Shown here: positions 6,217-37,604 of the stretch, one piece after another | Numbering within the stretch: position 1 is the first letter of the stretch | Layout: each line of letters begins with the position of its first letter | Assembly: GCA_913048135.1 (NCBI GenBank) | Contig: CAJWVY010000010.1 | Span: 1-39,017 of the forward strand | DNA: 39,017 nt | Direction of reading: 5' to 3' | Source: an uncultured Verrucomicrobiales bacterium | GTDB lineage: Bacteria > Verrucomicrobiota > Verrucomicrobiia > Limisphaerales > UBA1100 | Notes under the pieces: generated by a model | Seen by the model: the letters and a program-made list of their open reading frames with translations, nothing else | The model's database searches: none | What the model was told of the DNA's origin: nothing | Translations under genes and position numbers: made by a program

Positions 6217-8328
6217 TTACCCCCAAATAAACCCGATTGCTGAGACTAGCAGCCCCAAACCCAACAGGCTTACCAGACCGAACTGAAACCAACGCACATC
6301 AAGACCATCGCGGGTGGGATTGATGACGGGTTGATAGTCTCCTCGATGTTCAGGCAGGATCAACATCCATCCGTGATCTTCACCGGTGGAGGCAAATTCA
6401 GCCGTTTGTTCCGCGTTCGCCATCATACCGGTCATAAAGATGAACACCAACCAATAGAGATTGTTATCGGAGAAAAAAACCAACCAGAACCCACACATTC
6501 CCCCTCCGAAAATGATGTGCCACTTCCGAACAACACGCGGGAAGAGGCGGTTACTGACTGATAAGCCCAGGGCTGTAAGAATACCCAGTGGTAATCCCAG
6601 CCACAAAAATTTCCAAGCGATACCAAACATTAAGGTAGCCCCTAAACACAGCAACCCGCCCAACACGAACAAGAATGGTAGATTGAAAACCATTAAAGCG
6701 GGCAGGTTTATTTTTCCTTTACGCTGCGGGATTTTTGGAGCTTTTAGTTTAGGCTGCACCAACTTGGTCCAGCCCCAACAATACGCTACAATTGGGCCAA
6801 CACCTAATGAACCAGCACAGAAGCGTTGAAACGCTTCCGATGAAGGTAAGTCGGTGAAGGCCACTCCAAGCGCTCCGATTCCCAAACCGCCCAGCAGGAT
6901 TAGCCACAATTTGCGCTTAATATACCGGCTCACTGCCGAACCATTCTTTTGAGACGACCCGTCGCCATCTAGCTGTGTCATCAAATCCAAACCGGCCGCC
7001 CCCCCAGCTAACACCATTAGGCCCGATGCACCGATCCCGCCAATGAACCAAAGAAAGCTGAGGCCCAAATTCTCTAAAGCGCTCGTCCAAACAGCGCTCG
7101 CAGCATACACGGCCCCCGTAACACAAGCGACCAATACAAAGGCACCATGTACTGCAACAAAGGATCGGAAACATCGGGTGAAATCAAAATGATATTTAAT
7201 CGAGGCCACTTGGAGGGCAGCTGAATCGGGATAATGGCGTCGCTGGAATCGATTCACGCCCAGCAATAACGCGCCTAGCAAACCACCCATCACGCCCACG
7301 CCGCCTAACCGGCCCAGTGCGCCTTCGGCCGGGTACCACGAAGGTTTGGACTCCGTTTGTGGGGTTGGTGTTTTCGGCACCGGAGCGGGAATAGGTGGCG
7401 GTACAGGAACACCATTGGTGTTTCCCTTGGGGATATTTTTGGAATCGCCCGGTTGAGTCTTGGGTAGAGGCTTGTCCTCGGCCCGGTCAGTACTCGGAGT
7501 ATCTTGGATAAGAGTGAGCCCGAAAAAAACCAGCACCACCACTCCAACAAAACCCAGTGCTGGCAGGTAAGCTTTTTTGGGATCGGTTTTGACGTTCGTC
7601 CAAACATGGCTTGCAGCGGAATCCGCAATTTTTAGTTGCCGTATCAGCACAAACCCCATGCTAACGAGAAATAACGCCATATTGACGCCGATGACCCAGT
7701 ACAACGAACTGGATATATTTCCCTCCCCGGTGCTCTTCAGCGTGACCCAAATAATCCCGGTGACGAACGCCAGTGCGAAGGTAAATACGGCCACATAAGT
7801 CGGCGCATTTTGACTGAGCCAAACGCCAAACTGAAACGAGTCTTCCGGCTCTGGCTCAACCAATGGCTCGGCGAGGGTTTCGCCATCCGCGGCGGCAGCT
7901 TCCTTCCTCTTCCGAAACACCACCGTTCCAAAGGCGCCCAAAAAGGAAAGCGCAGCCAGAACGAATACCCATTTCACTAGCGAATGGGCCACGCCACCGT
8001 CGTTACTCTGCACGGCCCAGACCACCGCCAATACAAATGCGGTGACGGCCGAAACCAACGCAACGGTGGTGGGCGTGTTTTGCCGGACCCAAACCCAGGC
8101 GGCGTTGGGTTCACGGGCCGGTTCAGGCTGTGGCAGAACTTCTAGTTCCGAAAGGACTTTCGGCTCCTCAACCTCAACCGGTTCCGCCACCGCCGAAGCC
8201 GTACCCGTCTTCAACTGGGCTTCCAGTGCGGTGCGAAGCTTATCCAAATCCACTGAGCCATCGGTCGGCAAACGCAGCCGCAACTTGACGTCGGGCGTAT
8301 TACGCGGTTGATGACGAGGCTGACTCAT
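6217..8328 (-). CDS. Large polytopic membrane protein (about 14 TM segments) with Pro-rich linker and duplicated N-terminal 2-TM module
   Basis: 703 aa ORF; many hydrophobic segments; repeated 'VWVRQNTPTTVALVSAVTAFVLAVVWAV' and 'VWLSQNAPTYVAVFTFALAFVTGIIWVT'. Starts 3 bp after the stop of the PLD-like gene. No family recognised. Confidence 0.75.
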   Translation of the reverse strand: MSQPRHQPRNTPDVKLRLRLPTDGSVDLDKLRTALEAQLKTGTASAVAEPVEVEEPKVLSELEVLPQPEPAREPNAAWVWVRQNTPTTVALVSAVTAFVLAVVWAVQSNDGGVAHSLVKWVFVLAALSFLGAFGTVVFRKRKEAAAADGETLAEPLVEPEPEDSFQFGVWLSQNAPTYVAVFTFALAFVTGIIWVTLKSTGEGNISSSLYWVIGVNMALFLVSMGFVLIRQLKIADSAASHVWTNVKTDPKKAYLPALGFVGVVVLVFFGLTLIQDTPSTDRAEDKPLPKTQPGDSKNIPKGNTNGVPVPPPIPAPVPKTPTPQTESKPSWYPAEGALGRLGGVGVMGGLLGALLLGVNRFQRRHYPDSAALQVASIKYHFDFTRCFRSFVAVHGAFVLVACVTGAVYAASAVWTSALENLGLSFLWFIGGIGASGLMVLAGGAAGLDLMTQLDGDGSSQKNGSAVSRYIKRKLWLILLGGLGIGALGVAFTDLPSSEAFQRFCAGSLGVGPIVAYCWGWTKLVQPKLKAPKIPQRKGKINLPALMVFNLPFLFVLGGLLCLGATLMFGIAWKFLWLGLPLGILTALGLSVSNRLFPRVVRKWHIIFGGGMCGFWLVFFSDNNLYWLVFIFMTGMMANAEQTAEFASTGEDHGWMLILPEHRGDYQPVINPTRDGLDVRWFQFGLVSLLGLGLLVSAIGFIWG

Positions 8329-8331
8329 GGA

Positions 8332-9036
8332 TCAACTGAAGTCGCGCCACAGTTTATCGAACATCCGCGTAAAATCCTTAAGCAGGTCGCGGTCGGTGGT
8401 AATGAGAAAATTTTCCTCGTTATGCAGCGAGGCTGAGCGCGTCCAGTTGTAGCTACCGGTGAGGAGTTTTGATTTATCGAAGATGGCAAACTTATGGTGC
8501 ATGTGATGCTCGGAGCGATCGACGCGCACGGGAATTCCCATTCGCTCAAGCCGATCGATATCAGAACCGGCATCCATGGCCTTATCATCATCGCTGATCA
8601 CCCGCACCTGCACATTGCGCCGATGGGCGCGCTCCATGGCATCCACAATCCGGTTGTCCGTGATGGTAAACACACACACATCTACCGAGGCGCGAGCCGT
8701 GCCAAACATTTCCGTGATCTTGCCCACGCAATTGTCATCCGGACTAAAGTACGATTTTGCTCCCTCGCGCTTGCCGCCGGCCGGAAGATTCTCGGTGGGG
8801 TGTAGGGTTTTGACCGTGCCTTCCAGCCAATCCAAAACCTGAAAGCGTTGGCCAGCATCGGCCTTGGCAAGGGCTTCGCGGGCGGCATCAAAGGCCATGC
8901 TCCGATAAAGCGCGCGGCGCTGCTCGTCGCCACGGACATTATCCAGCAAATCGCGGAGTTCGTTGCGTTCTTTCTTGGTGAGTTGATAATCCTCCAGCGT
9001 TTCCTGGAGCAGGGCTTTGACCTCGTGATCTTTCAT
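8332..9036 (-). CDS. Phospholipase D-like (single HKD motif) protein with helical N-terminal extension
   Basis: 234 aa; 'HHKFAIFDKSKLLTGSYNWTRSASLHNEEN' matches HxK(x)4D(x)6GS of the PLD superfamily; only one HKD motif. Confidence 0.85.
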   Translation of the reverse strand: MKDHEVKALLQETLEDYQLTKKERNELRDLLDNVRGDEQRRALYRSMAFDAAREALAKADAGQRFQVLDWLEGTVKTLHPTENLPAGGKREGAKSYFSPDDNCVGKITEMFGTARASVDVCVFTITDNRIVDAMERAHRRNVQVRVISDDDKAMDAGSDIDRLERMGIPVRVDRSEHHMHHKFAIFDKSKLLTGSYNWTRSASLHNEENFLITTDRDLLKDFTRMFDKLWRDFS

Positions 9037-9225
9037 AATTACAGGTATGCGTTGCCCGCGAATGGCGGGAGCGTTGGGACGGAAATTATCCTACCGAGCC
9101 GATCCATAACCGCCAAGAATTAACCCACGGATTTTCGGCGAAAAATGTTCCCTATATTCGTCTTTTCGACTAATCTTTGATTACCCACTCGCTGCGAACT
9201 ACAACCCACAAGGGAAGGCACTGTC

Positions 9226-10080
9226 ATGGCCAAGTTTCTGGATAATTGGAAAAACAAAGTTACGACCTATAAAAACAAGGCGGAAGAAATTCGCGCCATG
9301 ATCGAGGAAGGCGCGGAGACGATTCGCGACATCCGCGCGGATGTCGAGGGCACCGTCGAGGATCTTAAAGCCGACAGCGAGGAAAAGATGATGGAAAGCC
9401 TGGAGAAAATCCAGGACTCCGAGCGGGTCTTCAAGGAGGCAGGGTATCTGCTTAGCGCAATCGAACTGGAGATGGGGTTCAACCCCAAGGTCGTTGCCGT
9501 GCTGAAACGCGAATCGGAAATCGGATCCCGCAAAAAAGAACGCCTTTTGAAACAGCACGAGGATAACAAAGTGCTCTCCACCGTGCTCACCTCCCTGTTC
9601 AAAGCCGAGGCGCTGGAGGACAAGGTTCATCTTCGACGGCTGACCTTCACTGAGGTGCACATTGAGATGGGCCTCGTCCCCGCCGTACATGTGTTGTGGG
9701 AAGACAAGGCCGCCTCTGGCATCAGCTCGGCCTCCATTCTGCCGATTGAGGAAAGCTCCAGCAGCAGCGGCAGCTCATTTACCTCCAACTCCTCGTTCAC
9801 CAGCAGCCGCTCATCCTTCGTAAGCCAACCATCGGCCTTTACCTCCGGCGAAACCGTCGAAGCAGCCCCGACCGAAGAAGAAATCCCACCGCTGCCTCCA
9901 GCGGAACCGACCGCCGAGGAAGCTGCCGCGCCACCGCCACCACAAGCTGAGACCGAGGAGGAAGAGGATGCAGAGAGCTTCACCGCCCCGGTGGTCAGCG
10001 CTAGTGCTCGTGATCCGGAAGATGACAAATGGACCAGCTTTCCGGACATCTCCTTCCCATCGAGTAAGGACGACAAATAA
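9226..10080 (+). CDS. Hypothetical charged protein: N-terminal coiled coil, Ser-rich linker, acidic C-terminus
   Basis: 284 aa ORF with RBS-like 'aagggaagg' upstream of ATG; MAKFLDNWKNKVTTYKNKAEEIRAMIEEGAETIRDIRADVEG...; SSSSSGSSFTSNSSFTSSRSSF linker; EEEEDAESF acidic tail. Confidence 0.75.
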   Translation: MAKFLDNWKNKVTTYKNKAEEIRAMIEEGAETIRDIRADVEGTVEDLKADSEEKMMESLEKIQDSERVFKEAGYLLSAIELEMGFNPKVVAVLKRESEIGSRKKERLLKQHEDNKVLSTVLTSLFKAEALEDKVHLRRLTFTEVHIEMGLVPAVHVLWEDKAASGISSASILPIEESSSSSGSSFTSNSSFTSSRSSFVSQPSAFTSGETVEAAPTEEEIPPLPPAEPTAEEAAAPPPPQAETEEEEDAESFTAPVVSASARDPEDDKWTSFPDISFPSSKDDK

Positions 10081-10095
10081 CTAACTTATCTCAAC

Positions 10096-10127
10096 AAAAA
10101 GGCCGGCATCACGCCGGCCTTTTTTTT
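10096..10127. terminator. Bidirectional Rho-independent terminator between convergent genes
   Basis: aaaaaGGCCGGCatcacGCCGGCCtttttttt: 7-bp GC stem flanked by A- and T-tracts, directly between the stops at 10080 and 10144. Confidence 0.9.
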
Positions 10128-10143
10128 GTGGAAATTCAGCACC

Positions 10144-13100
10144 CTACTCCGCCGGAGGTGATTCCTGCCCCTCGGCCGGCGGCGCTTGTCCTTCAGTCTG
10201 TTGCTGGGCTTGAGCCGTTTTAAGCTGGTCCAAAATCTGTTGGATCAGTTCATCGCTGTTCTGCGTCATTTGTTGACTGACATCCACCACCACTTCGCTC
10301 GGCTGCGCCTCGCGCAGTTGCCCCTGTAATTCAGTGACTCTCTCTTGATAATTGCCGAATAACGCACCCACCTGTTGCAGTGCCGTCTGAAGTTGTGCGG
10401 CCTGAGCGGATGCCTGAGATTGGTTAATCGTTTGGGCCAATTGCTGGTTGCTCTGCTGGATGAATTCCATCATGGCCTGTTGGCGTTCGGCCAACATCTG
10501 CTGATTCCCTTCCGCCGTTGCGGACGCCTGGCTGGATTGCTCCAAGTATTTCTCGATCGCCCCGCTAATCACTTCCATCTGATTGGATGAAACCGGAGCC
10601 GGAGCACCTTCGCCTCCTACGACTGGAGCGTTAGCAATATTCTCTGCCAGCGTTTGGCGCAGGTTTTCCAGATCAGCACTTAACGCACTGGTGTCGATGG
10701 TGGTCGTGCGTTCCTTTGAAAGTTCTTCCTTGAGCGTGTCCTGGATCGACTCTAGCCCCCCGCTGAAAAGAGAAAGCTGGCTGACCACGCGGCTGACGGG
10801 ATCGTTTTGGTCGCCGCCCTGCAGATATTGGTTCCGGCCGAAGGTGCGCTTGATTTCCTCCCAACGCTCCGCTTCCTCCTCGCTCATCACGCCGATGAGT
10901 TGCTTAAACTTTAGGAAGTTCGCTTCGGCGCCGGTGGTGAGCGTTTGACTCTCACCCTTGTAATGATCGAGCACGAGATCCATCAACTCCTGCTCGTTCA
11001 TCATCGGCAACACCTTTTCGGCGAGACGGTTCATGTTCCGGTAGGAACCCTGCATTTTGAAGGCCGGCTCAGTGCGGAATTCATCGGACTGCCCAGCGCT
11101 TTCGATGTAGAGTTGGTTCACCTTCAACACCACATCGCGGAGCGTGATCATTTTCTTGATCACGGTGATTAATTCCTCTTGTTCGTTGGCGGAGAAATTA
11201 CCCTGCAATTCGATGCCCTCGCGCTGATCGGTTTCAGCCATGCGAATAAACGCCTGAATATCCTTCTGCGCCGCCTTACCAAGCGATTGCAGTGCGGGGT
11301 TCGAAGTGATTGCGTTCTCAATGTAACTGCCGGAGAAAGCAGTTTCGCGGCCTTTCATGTCGTCACCGAGATTGTAGGTGTCTGCACGGTTGGTGAGCAT
11401 GTCCGGCACACGGAATTTTTCACCGCTCTCGGTGTACGGGTTACCAGCCATCACCACCACCACGCGGCGACCACGCATATCGTAGGTCTTCGGCTGGCCG
11501 CGCCACACGCCCTCGATCTTGCGCTGGGCATCACACAACGAAATAAACTTCTGTAGAAACTCCGGATTACAGTGCTGGATGTCGTCCACGTAGATCATCA
11601 CGTTATCGCCCATCTCAAGCGCGAGGTTGAGCTTCTTGACCTCCTCACGCGCACCAGCATTGGGCGCCTCCTCGGGATCGAGCGAGGTCACCTCATGGCC
11701 AAGTGCCGGGCCGTTGATCTTCATGAAAATCAGTCCCATGCGGTTGGCGAGATATTCCATCAAGGTGGTCTTACCATAACCGGGAGGAGAGATGAGCAGC
11801 AGCAGACCCATGAGGTCCGTGCGCTTGGCATCGCCGGCCGCACCGATCTGCTTGGCAAGGTTATCACCGACGATCGGCAGATATACTTCATCCACCAACT
11901 GGTTCCGCACAAAGGATGACAGAACGCGCGGCTCAAATTCATGCAGGCGCAGCGCCTCTTTTTCAGATTCGATAAGCGCCTGTTTCAGCTCCTGATACGC
12001 CTCAAAGCGCGGCACCGATTCGCGGGCAAAGCGTCCGAGCTTCTCTTGGAAAGCCAGATAATCGAACGGATAATTCCCGCCCTCTTCCACTGCATCATGC
12101 GCGCCCTGAATACCTTCCAGAACCTGCCCGGTAGCCGCCTTCACCACGGCCTGTTTGTGGAGGTGGCCGCAGAAAACCAGTCCCGCCACTTCCTCGAGGT
12201 ATTTGTTGGCGCCATTTCGGTCGAGCAGGAAGCCTCGTACCCAGTCACGGATCAGCTGATAATGACTGTGCGGATCCTTCTGAAGCGGTTTCTGCGCCTT
12301 GGCAAAATCGCTTTCACGACCTTTCTTCACGAGATGCCGCTCAAACTCCGTGAGCAGACTGTCGGCCTCCTGGCTGACCACCCAATCGCGGCCGTTGGTG
12401 TGTTCGTAGAAGAGATATTCGCCGGCCGGATCCGCATCCTCGGGCGGGAATAAACCGGTTTCTTCAATAAACGCCGCCACCATGGCGCGCAGTTCGGCCA
12501 CATAATCGGCCTGAGTGGGATCGCCCGGGAAAATTTCGTTACGGGTGGCAAAGCCCTCCAGACGGGCGAGCATCATCTTCGCGGCATCCGGATCACAGAA
12601 TTTATTCCAGAACACCGCCGCACAGGCTCGCGCGCGGGGGTAATACCGCGCGAGTTGCAAGGCGCTTTGAGTGCTGAGCAGTGCCGCTAAAATCTTTTCG
12701 GCGTCCTGATCATGGATACCCTTGGTATAGGCCTCCGAATAACGATCGCCCATGAAGTCCTGCACAACCTTAAGGCGTTCCTCGACACTCATCTCCGCCA
12801 CCTCGGTCATGCGGTCGATGCCCTGCTGCTCCAGCTTTTGCCACAACAGGTAGGCGAGATATTCCGCGCGGTAAACTTCATTGTCCTCAGACACCACCGT
12901 TTGATCCCACACCTCGCGAGTGGCCAAGAAGGCTTCGTCGGTAACTTCATCGAAATATTGCGTGCCCGTCAGATGCAGATTCTGATCATTGCCGCGTCGC
13001 ACCATGGTAAGATCCAAAGGCTGTGCGTTGACGGCAAACTTATGTTTTCCGAACTGGATGACATTCTGCCCATCCACATACAGCTCCTGCTTATCCTTGA

Positions 13101-15645
13101 GCTGACGCACGGCCTCCTCGTGAATGCTCTTGAGCTGGCTTTGAATGCCCTCCGCTTCGCCGGCCTTATCCAGCGCCTGCAGTTCTTGCACGCGTTCACG
13201 TATCGAATCAATCATCCGATCGCCAGCCATATAGCCATTGATGTCATTGACATCCTCAAACGTCCCGAGCTTGTGCTCAATGCTCTTGAGCATGCGTTCC
13301 GCAGATGACACCAGTGCGGTGGCCTTGCGATTGCGAGCCTCCTCCAGTTGCAGGCGTTTCTGCTCAAAGGCCGTCTCCAGCTCACTGCGTTTCTGGTCCA
13401 GCTGCTCGATGTATTCCGGGAAATCTGCAAAGTCACCACCCAGATCCTCAAGTTGATTGAGGATATTATTGAAGTACTCATCGCACTTCTCCGGCGAGTC
13501 GGACATATCCAGATAATTGGTCGCCGTCTGGCTCAGCAGCAAAATCTGCGCGTTAAACTGCGCGGCCCCTTCCGCCGTCATCAGCGAGCGCATCTTGTTC
13601 TTCAGCGCTTCCTTTACCTGATTGACCACCTGATAAATCGCCGTGATTCCCTCCACGATGCGTGTCTGCTCGGTGGTATCGTCAATCGACAGACTCCGGA
13701 CGATGTCGATCAACATTTCCAGATCCGAGCCCGCCGTGGTGATCTCCTCCTCCAGCTCCTTGCCCTCAGCCACCTTAGTGACCCCATCCACGCGCCCGCG
13801 CTGTTCCTCAGCCCGTTCGCGATAGGGATCCAACGATTCGGGCTGCAGCAGAAATTCCACGCACTTTTGGGAGAGCACATCCACCTGCTCCTTCACCTGC
13901 GCTTCCAGCGCCTCCATGGCTGCGGTATCAATGAAACGCACCTCATCCTTCAGCGTAATAATCTCGCCGCGCATCCGCCGCAACCCACCCAGATTGGCCA
14001 CAAAATCATCCACGGACTTGAAATTGGCCCGACCCACCTGGCTAAAGAGTTCCTTGGAACGCTTGGCAATATCCTCGGATCGTTCACGAGCCTCCAGCTT
14101 GAGGCGGCGTACTTTGTCGAATTCCGCAATCGCTTTCTCCGCAGTTTCTGCGACGCCCTTGAGGACTTCGATAATCTTACCACCCTCCTCGGATCCCAGC
14201 CACGTGTGCGCGCTGGGAATACTACCTGCCTTGGCGGCCATGTCTGCGTACAGATCAGCATATGGCGATTCCTTTTGGATCAGCAGCAGTACCTCATTGC
14301 ACTCCGCCATCGCTTTCACCACGGCTTTGTTGCCCACCTGAAACAACAACGAATCGCGTTCGCCGCTCTCCGGTTCAAAGCCTGGTTGATAAAAGGGCGA
14401 TTGGCGCACCTGAATCATGTGATGCTTGATTGCCTCTTCCTCCGCCCGAAAGCTCACCAAATCACCATTCGGAAACAACGAAAATCCATTGCAGGCAATA
14501 CGCTCGGAGATTTCCTGTTCAATCAACCGATAGGGCATCAAGGCATACAGGCCGGACATGCGATTGAAAAAAACGTATAGATAATCTTCTCCATTCGGCG
14601 AGGTCATGGTCCGTTCCAGCAACATGTCGCCCTCTTCGGCCTCGTAACGCTTCAGCTCGCCGCTCTGTAGATAGTAGCCATCCGGAAAGATTAAGCCATG
14701 CTCCTCGGGCAGCAGGATGCAGGATTGCCCGATCGAATCCACACGGTGAACGGATTGCAGCTTTTCGTTGAAAATAAAATACCGGGTGACCTTCTCCCGG
14801 TAGGGCGTAATTTTGATCAGGATCAACGCGCCCTGAATAGCGTACTGAATCTCAGCATCGTCCAACTTCTGGTTACGATCCTCCACCGGTTCCGAGTAAA
14901 TGCCGTCCCCCGTGGCTGTATTGTCCTCGATCTTGATCGTGAGATCGCCGCCCACACATTCCACAAAAACCCGATCCTGAATCGATACATGCGGATTGTC
15001 ACCGTGCCGAACATCACTCGGTGTGGGGTTGATCCATTGGAAATTAAACTCCGCTGGAAACGCAGTGTTTAAGTATTCGTTGGCCGCTCTATCATTGTCA
15101 TAAACCAGTTGGCCATCAGCATTAATCAGCCACTTATAGACTGTGACATCCCCCACTTTGCTGCCCGTGCGGAACACAATATAAAAGTTCGAGCCAACCT
15201 GGGCAAACCGATGAAAGCGGGCATCCTTGTTGACTGAAAACATGACGCCAAACCGTTCCTGAAATTTAGCATCATGCAGGATGGACAGATCACCTTCCTT
15301 GAATTCCTCCGCAGCCTCGTCGTAATCGTATACGGCGAATACGTCGCTCAGCTGCCCCTGCTTAAGGCCCAGCTCAACATTGAAGCCAAAGAGGAAATGA
15401 TCGTGACCCAACTGAATCATATCCCGCGGCTCACAATTGAGTTGCGTGGACACGCGGGCCATTTTCTTAAGCTCCAGTTTCTTGGAGCCAAACACCTGTG
15501 CCCGGCGCTCATCCAGTTTCCCCAGCTCCTCGCGCAGGGTAGCGCCCTGGTCGTTCAGGCGCTGCTTGATGAGATCGTAAGCGCCGCCCTCCAGCGCGGT
15601 CGGTGCGCCTTCTCCGGTATTTCCACTGTCGGGAGGTTCCGCCAT
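10144..15645 (-). CDS. Giant AAA ATPase, DUF3686-like ('DNA repair ATPase' annotation family), Q/S-rich C-terminus
   Basis: Walker A 'SPPGYGKTTLMEYLA', Walker B-like 'NVMIYVDDIQHCNP', sensor-like 'VVVVMAGNPYTES'; N-terminal region with 'RYFIFNEKLQSVHR' (FIF motif recalled for DUF3686). Start set at ATG 15645 (MAEPPDSGN...); the upstream TTG at 15684 lies within a hairpin and is unlikely. Confidence 0.8.
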   Translation of the reverse strand: MAEPPDSGNTGEGAPTALEGGAYDLIKQRLNDQGATLREELGKLDERRAQVFGSKKLELKKMARVSTQLNCEPRDMIQLGHDHFLFGFNVELGLKQGQLSDVFAVYDYDEAAEEFKEGDLSILHDAKFQERFGVMFSVNKDARFHRFAQVGSNFYIVFRTGSKVGDVTVYKWLINADGQLVYDNDRAANEYLNTAFPAEFNFQWINPTPSDVRHGDNPHVSIQDRVFVECVGGDLTIKIEDNTATGDGIYSEPVEDRNQKLDDAEIQYAIQGALILIKITPYREKVTRYFIFNEKLQSVHRVDSIGQSCILLPEEHGLIFPDGYYLQSGELKRYEAEEGDMLLERTMTSPNGEDYLYVFFNRMSGLYALMPYRLIEQEISERIACNGFSLFPNGDLVSFRAEEEAIKHHMIQVRQSPFYQPGFEPESGERDSLLFQVGNKAVVKAMAECNEVLLLIQKESPYADLYADMAAKAGSIPSAHTWLGSEEGGKIIEVLKGVAETAEKAIAEFDKVRRLKLEARERSEDIAKRSKELFSQVGRANFKSVDDFVANLGGLRRMRGEIITLKDEVRFIDTAAMEALEAQVKEQVDVLSQKCVEFLLQPESLDPYRERAEEQRGRVDGVTKVAEGKELEEEITTAGSDLEMLIDIVRSLSIDDTTEQTRIVEGITAIYQVVNQVKEALKNKMRSLMTAEGAAQFNAQILLLSQTATNYLDMSDSPEKCDEYFNNILNQLEDLGGDFADFPEYIEQLDQKRSELETAFEQKRLQLEEARNRKATALVSSAERMLKSIEHKLGTFEDVNDINGYMAGDRMIDSIRERVQELQALDKAGEAEGIQSQLKSIHEEAVRQLKDKQELYVDGQNVIQFGKHKFAVNAQPLDLTMVRRGNDQNLHLTGTQYFDEVTDEAFLATREVWDQTVVSEDNEVYRAEYLAYLLWQKLEQQGIDRMTEVAEMSVEERLKVVQDFMGDRYSEAYTKGIHDQDAEKILAALLSTQSALQLARYYPRARACAAVFWNKFCDPDAAKMMLARLEGFATRNEIFPGDPTQADYVAELRAMVAAFIEETGLFPPEDADPAGEYLFYEHTNGRDWVVSQEADSLLTEFERHLVKKGRESDFAKAQKPLQKDPHSHYQLIRDWVRGFLLDRNGANKYLEEVAGLVFCGHLHKQAVVKAATGQVLEGIQGAHDAVEEGGNYPFDYLAFQEKLGRFARESVPRFEAYQELKQALIESEKEALRLHEFEPRVLSSFVRNQLVDEVYLPIVGDNLAKQIGAAGDAKRTDLMGLLLLISPPGYGKTTLMEYLANRMGLIFMKINGPALGHEVTSLDPEEAPNAGAREEVKKLNLALEMGDNVMIYVDDIQHCNPEFLQKFISLCDAQRKIEGVWRGQPKTYDMRGRRVVVVMAGNPYTESGEKFRVPDMLTNRADTYNLGDDMKGRETAFSGSYIENAITSNPALQSLGKAAQKDIQAFIRMAETDQREGIELQGNFSANEQEELITVIKKMITLRDVVLKVNQLYIESAGQSDEFRTEPAFKMQGSYRNMNRLAEKVLPMMNEQELMDLVLDHYKGESQTLTTGAEANFLKFKQLIGVMSEEEAERWEEIKRTFGRNQYLQGGDQNDPVSRVVSQLSLFSGGLESIQDTLKEELSKERTTTIDTSALSADLENLRQTLAENIANAPVVGGEGAPAPVSSNQMEVISGAIEKYLEQSSQASATAEGNQQMLAERQQAMMEFIQQSNQQLAQTINQSQASAQAAQLQTALQQVGALFGNYQERVTELQGQLREAQPSEVVVDVSQQMTQNSDELIQQILDQLKTAQAQQQTEGQAPPAEGQESPPAE

Positions 15646-15656
15646 GGATAGAGCCC

Positions 15657-15687
15657 CAATTGCCCCGGCCAATGACCGGGGCAATTG
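15657..15687 (-). promoter_or_regulatory. Perfect 12-bp inverted repeat (intercistronic hairpin) between flotillin and ATPase genes
   Basis: caattgccccgg-ccaatga-ccggggcaattg, 12-bp perfect stem, 7-nt loop, no following U-tract on the minus transcript; begins 6 bp after the flotillin stop and ends 11 nt before the ATPase ATG. Confidence 0.75.
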
Positions 15688-15693
15688 TGTGAA

Positions 15694-18012
15694 TTATTTG
15701 CCGAGTTTGTCGCCGAGGATCGTGCTCGCCAACTCGCTGCCAATTTCCGTGCCGCGCACAGCCTTTTCGGCCGCCCGCATTAGCCCGCGAAGCGAGTTGT
15801 CTTCGGTCTTGGATACCATGGAAGCCAACAATGCGGAGATAGTGAGATTCTTCACATCCTCGCTCTTTAGGCCGGATGCCTTAATCCAGCCGGCCAATTT
15901 ATTTTTCAGATGATCCGGGTCGCCGTTGAAGAAGGTGTTCTTCACGTCGGTGATAGTCTGACTGTTATCGACCAAGCGATCGACCACCTTGCCTTGACTC
16001 ACGGAGGAGACCACACGGTCGAAGAAGTCCTGCTCGCCGCCCACCAGATCGATGTTCGCGCTCTTGAGCGCTTCGCCCATTACGCGAGCCTGAGCATCGG
16101 CAATATCCTTCTTGATGTTGATATCGGCCAACTCCACATCCTTGTCCTTATCCAATTGCAGGCGGAATTCCTCGTGATCCTGAGAAGCCTTATTGAACAG
16201 CTCGATGGCCTTAGCCATCTCGGTCTTGGCCAGTGCCTCGGCAAGGCCCATCTTCTCGGCGCCCTGCGCCTCGGCCAGCCGGATCGCTTCCACGGATTTA
16301 CCTTCGGCCACACCCTTGGATTCGATACTCACACCTTCCGCAGTGCCCTTGGCGGCGATGCCTTTCGCTTCGCCCTCGCCTTCGGCAGCCTTTGCTGTAC
16401 CGGAAGCTTTACCCTGTGCCTCAATTACGGCGGCTTCAGCTAATCCCTGAGCCTTCTCGGCTTCGGCATCGACCGTCTTAGCCTCGGCCTTGGCCTTCAT
16501 CACATTGGCCTCGGCATAACCGGCAGCTGCCTGCATGGCTGCCGTTCCTTCGGCTTCCTGTTGCATAGCGTGGTTGCGTTTCTCACTCGCCTTGGCTTCC
16601 GCATCGGCAGTGATTTGAATTTGCTCGGCCGTTTGCTCGGCTTCCAGCTTGTCGGCTTCCGCCTTGGTCACATCCTCGTACTTGAGGGCATCAGCTTTCT
16701 TCTGGCGTACATCGTAATCGGCTTGCGCGGCAATGAGGTCGCGTTTTTGGTCCGCTTCGGCGCGGGCCTCGGCCTCGATGTTCAACACGCGGCGCGCCCG
16801 TTCGGCGCTCATGTCCGCCTCCACATCCAGTCGTTGTTGGTGCTGGGTGGTCACTTCCTTTTCCTTGGCCTCCAAACCGGCCTTGCTCTCGGCCACGCCA
16901 AACGCGGCGGCGATGATGGCCGCTTCCTTCTCTTGCGTCGATAACCCCACACGGCGCTCACGATCGACCTCGGCTTGCTGACCGGATTCCTTTTTCTCCT
17001 CCTCAAGTCGCAGCAAATCCTTGTCCAAATTCACGCGTGCTTCCTGCACCGATCGATCCTTTTGCACCGTGCGAACTTCCACATCCTCTTCAGTGCTCAA
17101 CCGGGCATTCTCGGATTCTTTCCGAGCAGCCTGAACGCTCTTTTCAGTTATGGCAGCCTCTTCCGCCTTGGTCACCTCCACCTCACGAGTTTGTGCAGCC
17201 AAGTGCTGCTCGTTTGTCCGATCCAATTCGCGCTGAGCAACCTCTGTCTCAATATCCTTGTTCTTGATCTGCAGCTCCATGTCCCGGTTCTGCCTGTTGA
17301 TCTCCTCTTCCTTGGCGGTATTCTGCTTGTTGATTTCCTCGTCCCTTTGAACTTTGCGCTGGTTCTCTTTCTCCTCCATTTGAGCAGTCAACTCCACAAT
17401 CTTTGCCCGACCTACGGAGTCCAGCACGTTATTGGGATCATGAGCATCCAATGGGGTTTGCTCGAGGTAATCAATCGCCACGTCCTCCAGCGTATAACCG
17501 TTTAGATCGCTGCCAATCGTGTCGATGATCTCCTGACGGAACGGAATACGATCGGTGTACAGCTTCTCGAACTGCATCTTCTTACCGGCCGACTTGAGTG
17601 CCTCGGAGAACTTCGCCTCAAATAACTGCTTGAGCAGCTCAATTTCCGATGCCCGCTCGCAACCCACCTGTGTCGCCACGGTTTTGATATCGTGAAAATC
17701 TGATTTCCCATCTACCTCGCTCTTTTCGTCATTTACGCGCACGTAAAAGACCACCTCAATATCCGCGCGAATGTTATCCTCACAAATCAACCCGTCCTTA
17801 CCTTTACGGACGACCTCCAGCTTTTTCACAGAGAGATCCATGATCTGCAACTGCTGAAGAATCGGCACACGATACATCCAGTCCTTCTTGACCTTGATAC
17901 CACCGAAACCAGTTCGCACACCGGCCTCACCTGGCTTGATTTTCTTAATAAATAGAAACAGACTGACCATCGTGACAAACAACAAACCACCGATAATTAA
18001 GAACCAAATCAT
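15694..18012 (-). CDS. Flotillin/SPFH (band 7) family protein with very long coiled-coil region
   Basis: 772 aa; N-terminal TM 'MIWFLIIGGLLFVTMVSLFLFI', SPFH-like 'IKPGEAGVRTGFGG...VPILQQLQIMDLSVKKLEV', then ~450 residues rich in A/E/K/Q with 'AEGEGEAKGIAAKGTAEGVSIESKGVAEGKS' typical of flotillins. Confidence 0.88.
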   Translation of the reverse strand: MIWFLIIGGLLFVTMVSLFLFIKKIKPGEAGVRTGFGGIKVKKDWMYRVPILQQLQIMDLSVKKLEVVRKGKDGLICEDNIRADIEVVFYVRVNDEKSEVDGKSDFHDIKTVATQVGCERASEIELLKQLFEAKFSEALKSAGKKMQFEKLYTDRIPFRQEIIDTIGSDLNGYTLEDVAIDYLEQTPLDAHDPNNVLDSVGRAKIVELTAQMEEKENQRKVQRDEEINKQNTAKEEEINRQNRDMELQIKNKDIETEVAQRELDRTNEQHLAAQTREVEVTKAEEAAITEKSVQAARKESENARLSTEEDVEVRTVQKDRSVQEARVNLDKDLLRLEEEKKESGQQAEVDRERRVGLSTQEKEAAIIAAAFGVAESKAGLEAKEKEVTTQHQQRLDVEADMSAERARRVLNIEAEARAEADQKRDLIAAQADYDVRQKKADALKYEDVTKAEADKLEAEQTAEQIQITADAEAKASEKRNHAMQQEAEGTAAMQAAAGYAEANVMKAKAEAKTVDAEAEKAQGLAEAAVIEAQGKASGTAKAAEGEGEAKGIAAKGTAEGVSIESKGVAEGKSVEAIRLAEAQGAEKMGLAEALAKTEMAKAIELFNKASQDHEEFRLQLDKDKDVELADINIKKDIADAQARVMGEALKSANIDLVGGEQDFFDRVVSSVSQGKVVDRLVDNSQTITDVKNTFFNGDPDHLKNKLAGWIKASGLKSEDVKNLTISALLASMVSKTEDNSLRGLMRAAEKAVRGTEIGSELASTILGDKLGK

Positions 18013-30596: not shown

Positions 30597-31748
30597 TTAT
30601 CTCCCAAATTTCGCGTGGGCCTCAGCAAACTCGTTGCTGACAATCGCGCCCGCCAATGAAATCTCCAGTGCCAGTGCCGAGGCGCAAATAATCTCCGCCA
30701 GTTTACGCGAGGAATACTGTCCGCCCGCGCAGCCCACCAACTGCAGGTTGCCGTGCTGCGCATTCAACCGCGTGGCGCCGCCCACCGTGCCAACCGTGAG
30801 GCTCGGCATGCTGAGCGTGGCGTACAAATCTTCACCGCGTTTTTCGTAGGTGGCAATGCCGATGGCGTTCTCCGCCACACAGGCCACATCCTGCCCCAGC
30901 GCCAGATACAACGCCGCCAGCGCATTGGCCACGTGCAGGTTCATGCCCAGCAGGCCGGCCATCTGCGAGCCGAGATGTTTATCCACCAACGCCTCCAAAA
31001 TCTCATCGGCCGAGACGCGCAGCAGCTTTTTCAACACCCGATTGGGCACCTGAAAGCTGGCAATCACATGATGCCCGCGGCCTTTCATGAGGCTGCGTTG
31101 CGCAGGGTTTTTGTCCGCGTTGAAATTGCTTTCCACCAGATAGCGGTATGGCGTGCCGTTGGAGAGATTCTCCACAATGTACCGGCAGGCGGCATCAGTG
31201 CTGAGCGTGACCATATTTTGGCCCGCGGCCTCTGCGGTGTCGTAAATGAAATCCAGAATCACCCGGTTATGGATGGGGATCTTGTCGATGCGCAGCAACT
31301 TGCCGTGGCGCGTGGTGCTCTCAGCGGCCGCCTTGATTTCATCGTAATGCGAATCCACCTGCTTCACAAACTCGAGTGCCTGCTCGATTTCACTGAAGCG
31401 AAATACCGGCGCGCGCGATAGCTCCTGCTTCACATGCCGCGTCTTGATGCCGCCGCTGCGGTGCGTGAGATAGAAGCCGCGCGTCATGGAAAGCGACAAC
31501 GTGCCTTCCACCGTGCACAACGGCACATAAAAATCGCCCTGCGCGTAGGTGCCATCGATCTTGAGCGGGCCGGACACGCTTTGCGGCAGGCCGACGAAGC
31601 CCACGTGATTCTCGATCAGGCCCTTGAGGTTATCCGGTTCATCCAGGGCAAACTCCGGCATCGCGTGCCCTGTCTGCTCCTTCAACCAGAGCCGGCGCGC
31701 CTCGGTATCCGCCTGGGTATAGCCCCGCGGTGGTGTGAGTTTATTCAT
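30597..31748 (-). CDS. Hydroxymethylglutaryl-CoA reductase-family protein (divergent)
   Basis: 383 aa; 'ENHVGFVGLPQSVSGPL', catalytic Glu 'VPLCTVEGTL', Lys 'NADKNPAQ', Asp 'LALGQDVAC', 'LTVGTVGGATRL', C-terminal His 'EAHAKFG'. Confidence 0.88.
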   Translation of the reverse strand: MNKLTPPRGYTQADTEARRLWLKEQTGHAMPEFALDEPDNLKGLIENHVGFVGLPQSVSGPLKIDGTYAQGDFYVPLCTVEGTLSLSMTRGFYLTHRSGGIKTRHVKQELSRAPVFRFSEIEQALEFVKQVDSHYDEIKAAAESTTRHGKLLRIDKIPIHNRVILDFIYDTAEAAGQNMVTLSTDAACRYIVENLSNGTPYRYLVESNFNADKNPAQRSLMKGRGHHVIASFQVPNRVLKKLLRVSADEILEALVDKHLGSQMAGLLGMNLHVANALAALYLALGQDVACVAENAIGIATYEKRGEDLYATLSMPSLTVGTVGGATRLNAQHGNLQLVGCAGGQYSSRKLAEIICASALALEISLAGAIVSNEFAEAHAKFGR

Positions 31749-31848: not shown

Positions 31849-34167
31849 TTACTTATGCTCCCCCCGCCCCAGCCACACCGGTAAAAGCACCAGCGCCGCC
31901 AGCAATGCCCCGGCCAGTCCCACCGCCAATAACAGCCCGAAATGCACGACCGGCGGAAAGACGGACACCCAAAACACCATCATCATGCCCACCAGAATGA
32001 TGGTGGTCGCCACAATCGGCCGCCCTTTCACCCGCAATGCCGATCGGGTAGCTTCGGCCGGACTCGCACCCGCCTGCCGTTCATCCCGCCAATGCGTGAT
32101 AAAATGAATCGTATCATCCACCGCCACGCCCAGCGCGATGGCCGCCACCATGATGGTGATCGAATTCAATGGCACACCGAGAAACCCCTGCAGGGCGATG
32201 ATCATTCCTACCGGCAACAAATTCACCGCCAACGCCAGCGCGGCCAATCCAACTGACCGCCACAGCACGGCCAGAATCACGCCGATGACGCCCACGGACC
32301 ATCCCACACTGCGGCGTTGGCTGCGCACAATCCGTCGATCCGCCTCGAGGATGCTGCGAATGCCGTTTTCCGCAGAGACTGTCACATTGGTCGGCGCTGC
32401 GGCGCGCGCCTCGGTTTCCACGCGCTCTAGGAGATTCAGATATTCGCTGCTCGGCATATCGCGCGTGCGCAGAGTGAGCTGGGCGGTTTGAAAATTGGTG
32501 TCGCACAACATAGTCAGAAACGGCAACTGCTCTTTCTGCGAAGTCACAAGGCCGGAAAAGAGCGCGGTCATCAGTGGATTTTCCGGCAGACAAAACGTCC
32601 CTTCCCGGCCGCCTTCCCATACCTCGTTAATCGCCGCCATCAATTGCGTGTAGGAATACACCGCCGTCACCCCCGGCTCGCGCGCCGCCATCTGATGCAC
32701 CGAATCGAGGTATTGCAGGAAATACGGATTGTTCAACCCGTTCGTCATTCCCGAATCCACCTGCACCTGCACCACGTTGATCCCGCCGTAGGCTTCATCC
32801 ATTTCCTCAATCATCACGCGCGTGGGGCTGGCGCGGTTCAGGAACTCCACTGCTCGCACATCCGTCCGCACCTGACTCAACCCCACCACCAGCAACACCG
32901 CGCTCAACACCAGCAACACCGCCATCGGCTGGCGCACCGCCTGCATCCGATCCGCCCAAGCCCGCCAACTGGAGTGATCCGCATCCGGTTCGCCGTCAGG
33001 CACTAGTTTAGCTTGAGAAGCAGATCGGTTTGCAAACAACAACGGCAACCATGCCAAGCCCGGCCCGAAAGTCAGCCCGAACAACATCGCAATCCCACTC
33101 GCGCCCAGCACACCGAATTCGCGCAATTGCTCCACATCACTGGCCAGCAAGGCCAGCAATCCCGTGATGGTCGTCAGTGCCGCAAACCCACTGGCGCGCA
33201 GCACTTCCCGGCCCATTGATTTCACCGCCGTCATCACCTCCTCGCCGGCCAACCAGGCGCGCTGAAACGAGGTCGCCACATGCGTCAACAGCGTGAGATG
33301 CACCGCGCTCAACAACGGCACCAACAACACCGTGAAAATATTCAGCTGCTGACCGGACAACTGATACAGCGCCGGCAACAACACCAACCCCATCACTTGA
33401 TTCGCCAACACATACACCATCAGGCGCGGTGTCCGGCGAAAGGTGAAGGCCAGCACCACCAGCAACAACCCCAACGCCACCGGCACAAACCGCACGGCAT
33501 CCGCCTTCACGGCGGTTCGAATTTCATGCTCAATCAATGGCAACCCGATCGCGTTCACCGAATAGCCGCGCTGCCGGAACTCTTCCAACACCGTGCCGAT
33601 TTCCTGGTCAAACACCGCCTGTTCTTCCGGTGTCACCAACGGCCGAGTGTAATTGGCTAGGATCACCGTGTGCCGGCCGTTTTCCGCCACCAAAATATTC
33701 CGGGCATAAGGATGCTCCTGCGACCAATGCCGCAGCTCGCTCATCCCCGCGGCATCCAGCCTCGAAGGTACAATATTTTTCCAGGCCAACCCAAATCCCT
33801 GCCGCACGGGCCGCTGGGCGGTCACTAAACTGTGCACGTTAGTGATAGAAAACACCCTGCCCTGCACATTGGTCACTTCGGTCACCGCTCCGGGCACCTT
33901 GCCGAGCGCCCAAGTCACCTCGCGGACCAATTCCAGCCCCGCCGGCGAATACACCTCACCGCAATCTAGGCTCACCGCAATCGGCACAGTCTCCCCCAAC
34001 ACCTCCCGCGCCGTCTCGTAGCTTTGCAGGTTCCGTTGATCGCCCGAAAGCAGATCATTCATCTCCGTGTCCACCTCGAGGTTGGCCATCCACACTGAAA
34101 TCCCGCAGGCCGCCAGCAACCCACACAGGGTGGCGCGCGGGAAATGCAGAAATGGATCACGCAACAT
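31849..34167 (-). CDS. RND/MMPL-family transporter
   Basis: Two 6-TM halves; 'DVRAVEFLNRASPTRVMIEEMDEAYGGINVVQVQVDSG', 'ITIMVAAIALGVAVDDTIHFITHWRDE'. Start set at ATG 34167 (MLRDPFLHFPRAT). Confidence 0.85.
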   Translation of the reverse strand: MLRDPFLHFPRATLCGLLAACGISVWMANLEVDTEMNDLLSGDQRNLQSYETAREVLGETVPIAVSLDCGEVYSPAGLELVREVTWALGKVPGAVTEVTNVQGRVFSITNVHSLVTAQRPVRQGFGLAWKNIVPSRLDAAGMSELRHWSQEHPYARNILVAENGRHTVILANYTRPLVTPEEQAVFDQEIGTVLEEFRQRGYSVNAIGLPLIEHEIRTAVKADAVRFVPVALGLLLVVLAFTFRRTPRLMVYVLANQVMGLVLLPALYQLSGQQLNIFTVLLVPLLSAVHLTLLTHVATSFQRAWLAGEEVMTAVKSMGREVLRASGFAALTTITGLLALLASDVEQLREFGVLGASGIAMLFGLTFGPGLAWLPLLFANRSASQAKLVPDGEPDADHSSWRAWADRMQAVRQPMAVLLVLSAVLLVVGLSQVRTDVRAVEFLNRASPTRVMIEEMDEAYGGINVVQVQVDSGMTNGLNNPYFLQYLDSVHQMAAREPGVTAVYSYTQLMAAINEVWEGGREGTFCLPENPLMTALFSGLVTSQKEQLPFLTMLCDTNFQTAQLTLRTRDMPSSEYLNLLERVETEARAAAPTNVTVSAENGIRSILEADRRIVRSQRRSVGWSVGVIGVILAVLWRSVGLAALALAVNLLPVGMIIALQGFLGVPLNSITIMVAAIALGVAVDDTIHFITHWRDERQAGASPAEATRSALRVKGRPIVATTIILVGMMMVFWVSVFPPVVHFGLLLAVGLAGALLAALVLLPVWLGRGEHK

Positions 34168-34279
34168 CTTCACGGTGCCCGCTTTTACGATGAATACCGG
34201 CCGGGCACGAACCTTTTCAGGCAGTCGCCGGTCAAAAGGAAATCCGTGACAGTCGTCACGCACCCGTTACCATCACCCC

Positions 34280-35647
34280 ATGCTTTCCCGCAGAAACTGG
34301 CTGCTCACTGCCTCCCTCGCTGCAGCCGCGCCCCTGACCGGTCTGGACCGACTACAACCCGCCGCGCGCCCCGGCCGCACCGAACCGGGCTTCCGCATCA
34401 AACACATTCGCCGCACCACCGTTGCCCTTCCGTATCGCCCCGTGCCCGCCCGCAATATGGCCCGCGAATTGCCGCATTGGGTGTACTCGGAAATCTGCGA
34501 GGTGGAGCTGGCCAATGGAATAGTCGGGTTTGGCGAGACCATGCTGTACTACACTTGGGGTGCCACCAGCGATGAGGACGTGAATTTCGCAAAAGGCAAA
34601 AACGCCGCCGCTCTTCTGTGGGATGACGAACTCGGTGCCGGTTTACAAATGGCCTGCTTCGACGCCGTTGCTCGGGCCATGGATGTGCCCATCCACGCGC
34701 TGCTCGGTAAACAAGTAAACAAACGTACACCGGTGGCCTGGTGGGATATCGATCTGCCGCCGGAAGACGTCGCCGCTGAAGCCAAATCCGCTGCCGCCGC
34801 CGGATACACCGCCTTCAAAACCAAAGGCCGCCCGTGGTTTGATATCTGGGAACAAGCCAAGCAAGGCAACGCCGCCGCGCCGAAAGGGTTTTCGATCACG
34901 TTTGATTACAACGATACCCTGCTCGACGCCGAACGCGGCATCCCAATCCTCAAGGCAGTGGAGCAATATCCCATCAGCAAGATGGTGGAAACCCCCATCC
35001 CGCAGGGAGATATCCCCGGCAATCAACGCATCCGGCGGGAAACCAAATCTGCGGTGGCCATGCACTACGGCAATCCCTCGCCTGTCGTCGCCATCCGCCA
35101 GCGCGTGTGCGACGGTTTTGTCGTGGGCGGAGGCGCCACCAGGGTCATGACTGCCGGCCGCATTGCCGCCATGGCCGACATGCCCTTCTGGCTACAGCTC
35201 GTCGGCAGCTCAATCACCGGCGCATGGTCGCGGCAATTCGGCGCCGTCCTTAGCCATGCCACCTGGCCGGCCGTCACCTGTTTCCAGTTGTACGCCGCCC
35301 AACCCACCAAACAAAACGTCGAGGTGCGCAACGGGTTCACCACCATCCCCAATGCCCCAGGTCTGGGCGTGGAACTCGATTGGAAAGTCATCAACCAATA
35401 CAAAGTGCCCAAACCGCCCGCACGCCCCGAACCCGCACGTCTACTGGAAACCCGCTGGCCCGACGGCCGCAAGCTCTACATCGGCAGCAACGGCAACGTG
35501 AATTATATGCTGCGGAAATTCATGAAGCCCAGCAACCTCCCCTACTTTGAACCCGGCGTGACCTGCCATCTGCTGGTGAACGACGGCTCCAAAGACTGGC
35601 GCGATCTCTATCAACGCGCCCGACGACACCCCGTGCTGACGCGCTAG
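34280..35647 (+). CDS. Tat-exported enolase-superfamily (mandelate racemase/muconate lactonizing-like) protein
   Basis: 455 aa; 'MLSRRNWLLTASLAAAAPL', 'EVELANGIVGFGETM', KxK-like 'GYTAFKTKGRPW', 'FDYNDTLLD', 'MVETPIPQGD'. Confidence 0.8.
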   Translation: MLSRRNWLLTASLAAAAPLTGLDRLQPAARPGRTEPGFRIKHIRRTTVALPYRPVPARNMARELPHWVYSEICEVELANGIVGFGETMLYYTWGATSDEDVNFAKGKNAAALLWDDELGAGLQMACFDAVARAMDVPIHALLGKQVNKRTPVAWWDIDLPPEDVAAEAKSAAAAGYTAFKTKGRPWFDIWEQAKQGNAAAPKGFSITFDYNDTLLDAERGIPILKAVEQYPISKMVETPIPQGDIPGNQRIRRETKSAVAMHYGNPSPVVAIRQRVCDGFVVGGGATRVMTAGRIAAMADMPFWLQLVGSSITGAWSRQFGAVLSHATWPAVTCFQLYAAQPTKQNVEVRNGFTTIPNAPGLGVELDWKVINQYKVPKPPARPEPARLLETRWPDGRKLYIGSNGNVNYMLRKFMKPSNLPYFEPGVTCHLLVNDGSKDWRDLYQRARRHPVLTR

Positions 35648-37458: not shown

Positions 37459-37604
37459 TTTTACCCTGCACAGGTACGGCCTAATGCGGAAAAGACGCCT
37501 TTTAGACGTTTTTTCTGACATTTTCCAGCCTTCTCCTTAGCGCAAAATTCTCGGGATTATTTGAGCAACCATTATGCCATTTTGTGAATAAACAGTTAAT
37601 AACA

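What the first reader, a model, noticed from the sequence alone, without database searches (positions are those of the whole stretch)
6217..18012. Candidate membrane-associated system: flotillin + giant AAA ATPase + coiled-coil protein + single-HKD PLD + polytopic membrane protein
Seen directly: flotillin and ATPase genes are adjacent in one transcription unit (48-nt gap). The PLD-like and 14-TM genes are separated by 3 bp. The small coiled-coil gene is convergent with the ATPase (shared bidirectional terminator) and divergent from the PLD gene. Knowledge: SPFH/flotillins scaffold membrane microdomains, AAA ATPases remodel assemblies, and PLD-superfamily enzymes cleave phosphodiesters in lipids or nucleic acids. 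The 'DNA repair' label on DUF3686-type ATPases has little direct support that I know of. Inference: a membrane-surveillance, repair or conflict module in which the ATPase acts on a flotillin platform and the PLD acts on lipid or nucleic acid. Related PspA/flotillin/AAA neighbourhoods have been discussed in comparative genomics of envelope stress, so novelty of this exact gene set needs checking.
Basis: partly seen in the sequence, partly recalled or inferred. Interest (0 to 1): 0.85.

Follow-up and report, generated by a model that had tools for sequence, protein, structure and literature searches.

The report
Flotillin–AAA membrane module with swapped partner
A known bacterial gene pair that builds a membrane scaffold (flotillin) with a giant ATPase has, in one order of Verrucomicrobiota, lost its usual NfeD-type membrane partner and shows no sign of the stress protein PspA, and carries instead a small previously undescribed protein, which makes the role of those partners testable.

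Summary
They are not one uniform system but three nested layers.

(1) Flotillin + DUF3686-AAA ATPase are a near-constant pair: 87 of 89 adequately covered ATPase loci across many phyla. This pair, usually with the NfeD-like protein YuaF/YqiJ and sometimes with CesT/Tir + PspA and a PLD, was already described by Ravi et al. 2024 (PMC11237479).

(2) The 284-aa gene ("CC284") has no Pfam, PDB-sequence or PDB-fold match. It sits directly after the ATPase in 12 families of one order (inverted only in the window's family) and was not found elsewhere in the phylum sample. CC284 and YuaF exclude each other: 27 versus 60 loci, none with both, and no overlap genome-wide. CC284-linked ATPases and flotillins each form one clade nested among the YuaF type, so this was a single partner swap. 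The flotillin coiled coil was rewritten at that point. No PspA was found in the 16 CC284 genomes checked.

(3) The PLD is a semi-independent recruit, adjacent in only two CC284 families and close to Zucchini/MitoPLD and Nuc. The polytopic protein occurs only in the window's family.

Likely role: ATP-driven upkeep of membrane patches on a flotillin cage, with CC284 as adaptor (inferred). Nothing supports defence or DNA repair.

The parts
15694..18012 (-). Flotillin-like SPFH protein, 772 aa: N-terminal TM (4-22), SPFH domain (~26-190), very long coiled coil (~199-540), C-terminal helical region
   Evidence: single TM; secondary structure; Foldseek: flotillin complex 9l3g E 6.6e-11, prohibitin, HflK/C, stomatin; no Pfam hit
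10144..15645 (-). Giant AAA ATPase, 1833 aa from the conserved ATG: DUF3686 (beta-propeller according to Ravi et al.), DUF7902/coiled coil, AAA domain with invariant Walker A (GYGKTT), Walker B-like VDDIQH, sensor-like GNP and NRAD
   Evidence: DUF3686 E 1e-152, AAA/AAA_5 about 1e-6
9226..10080 (+). CC284: order-restricted new family; helix 2-64 + beta-beta-alpha-alpha-beta-beta domain 74-160 + disordered linker + conserved C-terminal motif [KR][FW]xx[FM]P[DK]
   Evidence: alignment; distribution; AF2 pLDDT about 85-94 over most of residues 1-160; no PDB fold match at E<=0.001; no PDB sequence match
8332..9036 (-). Single-HKD PLD-superfamily hydrolase, 234 aa: ~95-aa helical N-terminus plus PLDc with intact HxKx4Dx6GSxN (H180, K182, D187, G194, S195, N197)
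   Evidence: closest solved chains are mitochondrial cardiolipin hydrolase/Zucchini 5e-37, then Nuc 3e-18, NucT 2e-15
6217..8328 (-). F703: polytopic membrane protein (about 11-12 hydrophobic segments), found only in the window's family, 3 bp after the PLD
   Evidence: no Pfam family
10096..10127 (.). Bidirectional intrinsic-terminator-like hairpin between the convergent CC284 and ATPase genes
   Evidence: Sequence AAAAAGGCCGGC ATCAC GCCGGCCTTTTTTTT; not listed by the simple scan, which looks for a separate T run

Best explanation
This is a divergent branch of the known flotillin / DUF3686-AAA membrane-maintenance module. The flotillin forms a membrane-anchored SPFH ring or cage over a patch of inner membrane. 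The giant ATPase docks on it and spends ATP to remodel, extract or assemble membrane-associated proteins there, as FtsH works with HflK/C. In one order of Verrucomicrobiota the usual NfeD-like partner (YuaF/YqiJ) was lost and CC284 was gained on the same branch. CC284 probably acts as a soluble adaptor: its N-terminal helix and small alpha/beta domain bind the rebuilt flotillin coiled coil, and its conserved C-terminal peptide on a flexible tether reaches the ATPase. In the window's family a single-HKD PLD and a polytopic membrane protein were added. The PLD most likely cleaves a phosphodiester of lipid or nucleic acid at the patch. SHOWN: pairing, partner swap, single origin, fold classes, intact PLD and Walker A motifs, coiled-coil divergence. 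INFERRED: cage, remodelling activity, adaptor role, PLD substrate, stress role.
For: FLOT beside the ATPase in 87 of 89 covered loci; 27 with CC284, 60 with YuaF, 0 with both. CC284 in 40/320 genomes of the order, 36 of them also with DUF3686 plus 3 with the ATPase C-terminus beside CC284. YuaF profile hits 19/313 genomes, none of them a CC284 genome. CC284 in 0 of 367 other sampled genomes of the phylum. CC284-linked ATPases fall in one clade (SH-aLRT 100) nested in YuaF-linked ones; flotillins need one change, support 100. Flotillin coiled coil 191-540: identity 0.60 within CC284 group, 0.66 within YuaF group, 0.34 between; SPFH beta part 0.69/0.66/0.51; AAA domain 0.79/0.72/0.70. Flotillin fold. 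Published description of the parent operon and of NfeD as the standard SPFH partner.
Against: No physical interaction was tested. CC284 has no TM helix, so it cannot replace YuaF's membrane part one-for-one. CC284 and YuaF occupy different positions in the operon, so loss and gain could be two unrelated events on one branch. The tree is of quick type and the flotillin tree carries a long-branch warning. In the window's family CC284 is on the opposite strand and so not co-transcribed with the pair; in G282 it lies away from the ATPase. Walker B is DD rather than DE, so hydrolysis is not guaranteed.
Confidence: 0.6

Rival explanations
1. CC284 is not a partner swap but an accessory gene that hitch-hikes after the ATPase; YuaF loss was a separate event and the FLOT-ATPase pair simply works alone in this order.
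For: CC284 is soluble and sits at the other end of the operon from YuaF; both changes map to one stem branch only, i.e. one evolutionary event. Abbreviated operons without PspA are known.
Against: CC284 is kept next to the ATPase in 36 of 40 genomes over 12 families, at 22-26% identity to the window protein outside its family, yet with conserved core and C-terminal motif; the flotillin coiled coil changed on the same branch.
Confidence: 0.25
2. A conflict or anti-phage system: flotillin/AAA senses membrane or nucleic-acid disturbance and the PLD acts as nuclease effector.
For: The PLD is closest to nuclease-type single-HKD enzymes and weakly resembles DISARM DrmC; PLD genomes outside the family are enriched for the ATPase (6 of 11 vs 37 of 289, Fisher p=0.0017 without phylogenetic correction).
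Against: DrmC, DpdK and NucT models are far below their cut-offs; no defence-specific PADLOC match for the other proteins; the locus has fixed chromosomal synteny and vertical inheritance inside the family; the PLD is usually absent or unlinked outside it.
Confidence: 0.07
3. The ATPase takes part in DNA repair, as the Pfam label says.
For: Only the Pfam description of PF12458 and distant RuvB P-loop similarity.
Against: 98% of covered loci pair it with a membrane-anchored flotillin; RuvB similarity covers only the P-loop region; no paper in the held library mentions DUF3686.
Confidence: 0.03
4. The five genes form one obligate machine.
For: Order FLOT>ATP> <CC284 PLD>F703> is kept in the window's family; FLOT>ATP>CC284>PLD> is contiguous in another family (L132).
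Against: CC284 loci in most other families have neither PLD nor F703; PLD mostly solo elsewhere; F703 found only in one family.
Confidence: 0.1

Closest known systems
CesT/Tir-PspA / Band-7-flotillin / beta-propeller-AAA / YqiJ-YuaF operon (Ravi et al. 2024, PMC11237479)
   Same: [quoted passage not shown] an HKD PLD is an occasional member there too
   Different: No YuaF/YqiJ, no PspA, no CesT/Tir; instead CC284, and in the window's family F703; the main text of that paper does not mention Verrucomicrobia
SPFH2-NfeD2 pairs (YuaG-YuaF, YqiK-YqiJ; Hinderhofer et al. 2009, PMC2636767)
   Same: Flotillin-class SPFH protein with one N-terminal membrane helix
   Different: NfeD-type partner absent genome-wide; flotillin coiled coil strongly diverged
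HflK/C-FtsH (SPFH cage with AAA protease)
   Same: Works-like analogy: membrane SPFH assembly plus AAA enzyme; predicted flotillin fold matches HflK/C chains
   Different: ATPase is not FtsH and no protease domain was found
Mitochondrial cardiolipin hydrolase/Zucchini, Nuc, NucT
   Same: Single HKD with HxKx4Dx6GSxN, aligned through the whole PLD domain
   Different: Has a ~95-aa soluble helical N-terminal region and lies in a flotillin locus; substrate unknown

Membership tests
Ravi et al. flotillin/AAA operon | TM + band-7/SPFH + coiled coil flotillin protein | tested here: met
Ravi et al. flotillin/AAA operon | AAA ATPase with N-terminal beta-propeller and coiled coil, next to the flotillin | tested here: met
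   DUF3686 + AAA, 48 nt from flotillin; 87/89 loci. The propeller fold itself was not modelled here
Ravi et al. flotillin/AAA operon | YqiJ/YuaF 3TM partner | tested here: not met
   Absent at the locus and genome-wide in the window's genome and all sampled CC284 genomes
Ravi et al. flotillin/AAA operon | CesT/Tir-PspA dyad (full form of the operon) | tested here: not met
   No PspA in 20 family genomes nor in G024/G045; no CesT at the locus; abbreviated operons lacking the dyad are part of the published description
Ravi et al. flotillin/AAA operon | Optional HKD PLD | tested here: met
   also beside the PspA-type operon in Flavobacteriales L099
PSP (PspA) envelope-stress system | PspA/IM30 homologue | tested here: not met
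   PF04012: 0 of 20 family genomes; CC284 is not PspA-like by hhalign (prob 2.7%)
SPFH2-NfeD2 pair | NfeD-type partner gene | tested here: not met
   CC284 and F703 do not resemble YuaF (hhalign prob 0.1% and 0.6%)
CesT/Tir chaperone family (for CC284) | Detectable profile similarity | tested here: not met
   hhalign prob 2.2%
Single-HKD PLD nuclease/hydrolase (Zucchini/Nuc) | One HxKx4Dx6GSxN motif in a ~140-aa PLDc domain | tested here: met
Single-HKD PLD nuclease/hydrolase (Zucchini/Nuc) | Nuclease or cardiolipin hydrolase activity | not testable with these tools
   Needs a biochemical assay
NucT equivalog / DISARM DrmC | NCBIfam curated cut-off | tested here: not met
   58.6 bits vs 211 (NucT), 37.8 vs 133 (DrmC)

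The most novel reading that the evidence does not exclude
CC284 founds a new class of soluble flotillin-ATPase adaptor that replaced the near-universal NfeD-type partner, so that a flotillin scaffold works with neither NfeD nor PspA. The single-origin swap, together with the rewritten flotillin coiled coil, marks where NfeD or its substitute acts on the cage wall.
Probability: 0.35. Interest if true: 0.65.

Novelty: new variant of a known kind. Interest (0 to 1): 0.5.

Why it matters
What NfeD/YuaF does for bacterial flotillins is unclear. A lineage that dropped it in one step, acquired another protein next to the ATPase and rewrote the flotillin coiled coil is a natural swap experiment: it points to an interface and gives a concrete set of proteins to reconstitute. 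It also gives the DUF3686 ATPase, labelled 'DNA repair', a membrane context across many phyla.

Tried and rejected
CC284 as a diverged PspA, CesT/Tir or YuaF: rejected by profile comparison. F703 as a YuaF relative: rejected. CC284 fold identification by Foldseek against PDB: no match at E<=0.001. The simple promoter/terminator scan was uninformative: promoter-like hits were no more than in shuffles. PLD as the core effector: rejected because it is mostly unlinked outside the family. 'Defence system': no support. An ATPase C-terminal tail specific to CC284 loci looked promising but several same-order YuaF ATPases have tails just as long. A likeness of the CC284 C-terminal peptide to ESCRT MIM motifs was considered from memory only and is not claimed. 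Literature searches for DUF3686 found nothing.
Full report
OBSERVATION. The five genes exist at the stated places. The ATPase start is better placed at Met14 of the listed ORF, where all homologues start (MAE/MAD...); this gives the 48-nt gap to the flotillin. PLD and F703 are 3 bp apart. The CC284 and ATPase genes converge on AAAAAGGCCGGC-ATCAC-GCCGGCCTTTTTTTT at 10096-10127. Pfam gives DUF3686 (1e-152), DUF7902 and AAA for the ATPase and PLDc_2 for the PLD, and nothing for the flotillin or F703. The flotillin assignment rests on its predicted fold: TM helix, SPFH domain, very long coiled coil, with the solved flotillin complex as best PDB match (9l3g, E 6.6e-11) ahead of prohibitin, HflK/C and stomatin. 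The model is of moderate confidence (pLDDT about 80 in the SPFH part).

PRIOR ART. Ravi et al. [quoted passage not shown] shortened forms are said to be widespread. Hinderhofer et al. 2009 (PMC2636767) showed that flotillin-class SPFH genes are paired with NfeD-like YuaF/YqiJ. So flotillin + ATPase, and even PLD, is not new.

NEIGHBOURHOODS. A scan of 84,980 species genomes with the ATPase gave 80 loci from Verrucomicrobiota, Planctomycetota, Bacteroidota, Bacillota, Thermodesulfobacteriota and others. With the family loci fetched separately there are 138 ATPase loci; 89 have at least 3.2 kb upstream and 0.9 kb downstream. Of these 87 have the flotillin next door, 60 have YuaF, 27 have CC284, none has both. 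Some of these loci are the same contig fetched twice under two handles (for example L031 and L034), so the counts are slightly inflated; the zero overlap is not affected. The two exceptions (L050, L065) show neither flotillin nor partner. PspA (PF04012) and CesT_Tir_1 (PF22550) stand upstream of YuaF in 16 of the 89 covered loci, in Bacteroidota.

CC284. The family was found in 40 of 320 genomes of the window's order, in 12 families and 17 genera, and in none of 367 other genomes sampled across the phylum. In 36 of the 40 it lies beside ATPase sequence on the same contig. In G198, G317 and G002 linkage could not be confirmed from the contigs read; in G282 it lies elsewhere. It follows the ATPase on the same strand everywhere except the window's family, where it is inverted. 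A profile of YuaF found it in 19 of 313 genomes of the order and in none of the CC284 genomes, so the exclusion is genome-wide. DUF3686 and CC284 co-occur in 36 genomes; with the ATPase C-terminus seen beside CC284 in three more fragmented genomes this is 39 of 40 (Fisher p about 1e-35 without correction for kinship).

SINGLE SWAP. In the ATPase tree the CC284-linked rows form one clade with SH-aLRT 100; the only non-CC284 rows in it are contigs that end too early or G282. It is nested among YuaF-linked ATPases of the same order. Flotillins show the same with one change, support 100, though a long-branch warning applies. Between the two groups the flotillin coiled coil differs far more than expected (identity 0.60 and 0.66 within groups, 0.34 between), the SPFH domain moderately, the C-terminus and the AAA domain hardly, and DUF3686 somewhat (8 fixed differences). 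The residue boundaries there may be off by a few positions. My reading, an inference, is that the flotillin wall and the ATPase's N-terminal domain were refitted when the partner changed.

WHAT CC284 IS. AlphaFold from five sequences gives helix 2-64 and a beta-beta-alpha-alpha-beta-beta domain at pLDDT about 85-94 over most of residues 1-160, then a disordered linker ending in a conserved short motif (alignment). There is no PDB fold match at E<=0.001, no PDB sequence match, no Pfam family at its cut-off, and no profile similarity to CesT, PspA or YuaF. The architecture (oligomerising or docking helix, small domain, tethered peptide) fits an adaptor, but no interaction is shown.

PSPA. PF04012 found no PspA in any of 20 family genomes, nor in G024 and G045, the other CC284 genomes of the 58-genome set, while it did find PspA in nine control genomes and in the YuaF-type genomes G054 and G032. 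PspA was not searched in the remaining CC284 genomes.

PLD. The HxKx4Dx6GSxN motif is intact. The best solved relatives are mitochondrial cardiolipin hydrolase/Zucchini (5e-37), then Nuc (3e-18) and NucT (2e-15); PDB content biases this ranking. The literature classes Zucchini, Nuc and NucT as nucleases (PMC5714352), and whether Zucchini acts on lipid or RNA was itself debated, so the substrate cannot be called. Full-length orthologues occur in 27 of 320 order genomes at E<=1e-30, one of them (G148) a partial match: next to the module in the window's family and, contiguous as FLOT>ATP>CC284>PLD>, in one other family (L132); elsewhere as a solo gene. Outside the family it favours genomes with the ATPase (6 of 11 vs 37 of 289, p=0.0017, uncorrected for kinship). 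A PLD also flanks the PspA-type operon in a Flavobacteriales genome (L099) and lies further upstream in Owenweeksia (L086).

F703. Found only in the window's family in a single-sequence search of 58 genomes. A 1042-aa gene in the F703 position in the basal genus (G011) shares its N-terminal motif. No Pfam family. Function is open; a membrane partner is the natural guess.

MECHANISM. Best-supported reading: an SPFH cage holding a membrane patch, served by a AAA machine. What the ATP is used for is inferred from FtsH-HflK/C and from the literature on SPFH proteins in membrane-protein quality control. In S. aureus FloA with NfeD was reported to stabilise unfolded proteins (cited in PMC13086221). 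The conserved chromosomal synteny and vertical inheritance inside the family speak for housekeeping rather than conflict.

LIMITS.

Noticed in passing
L116:2745-4056 (G014) and L028:15477-16073 (G019): One or two truncated tandem copies of the flotillin's TM+SPFH part (about 180-200 aa) lie just upstream of the full flotillin; some reading frames carry stops.
   Followed up: partly
L117:2983-3846 (G003), also G002, G005, G007; fragments in L119 and L124: A second, stand-alone SPFH-only paralogue (~288 aa, 42-45% identical) sits next to DUF1501/PSD1 genes in several genomes of the window's genus, sometimes broken by stop codons.
   Followed up: no
L115:5509-6138 (G011): A second, partial CC284 homologue lies about 4 kb from the first, on the far side of the long F703-like gene, in the basal genus of the family.
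   Followed up: no
L035:17202-19811: Some F703 proteins have a C-terminal extension of ~170-250 aa that looks Sel1/TPR-like by eye.
   Followed up: no
window 30597-31748: Full-length HMG-CoA reductase (PF00368) in a verrucomicrobial genome, near an MMPL transporter (31849-34263) and acyltransferase genes; flotillin microdomains are thought to need polyisoprenoid lipids.
   Followed up: no
window 35644-37521: Protein of 625 aa with at least nine Sel1 repeats.
   Followed up: no
L118:1684-4490 (G049): A remote YuaF-flotillin pair without the DUF3686 ATPase at the locus, about 31% identical to the window flotillin.
   Followed up: partly
L080:5944-9669: In one Bacteroidetes MAG the flotillin, a 183-aa SPFH fragment and YuaF are inverted as a block relative to the ATPase.
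   Followed up: no
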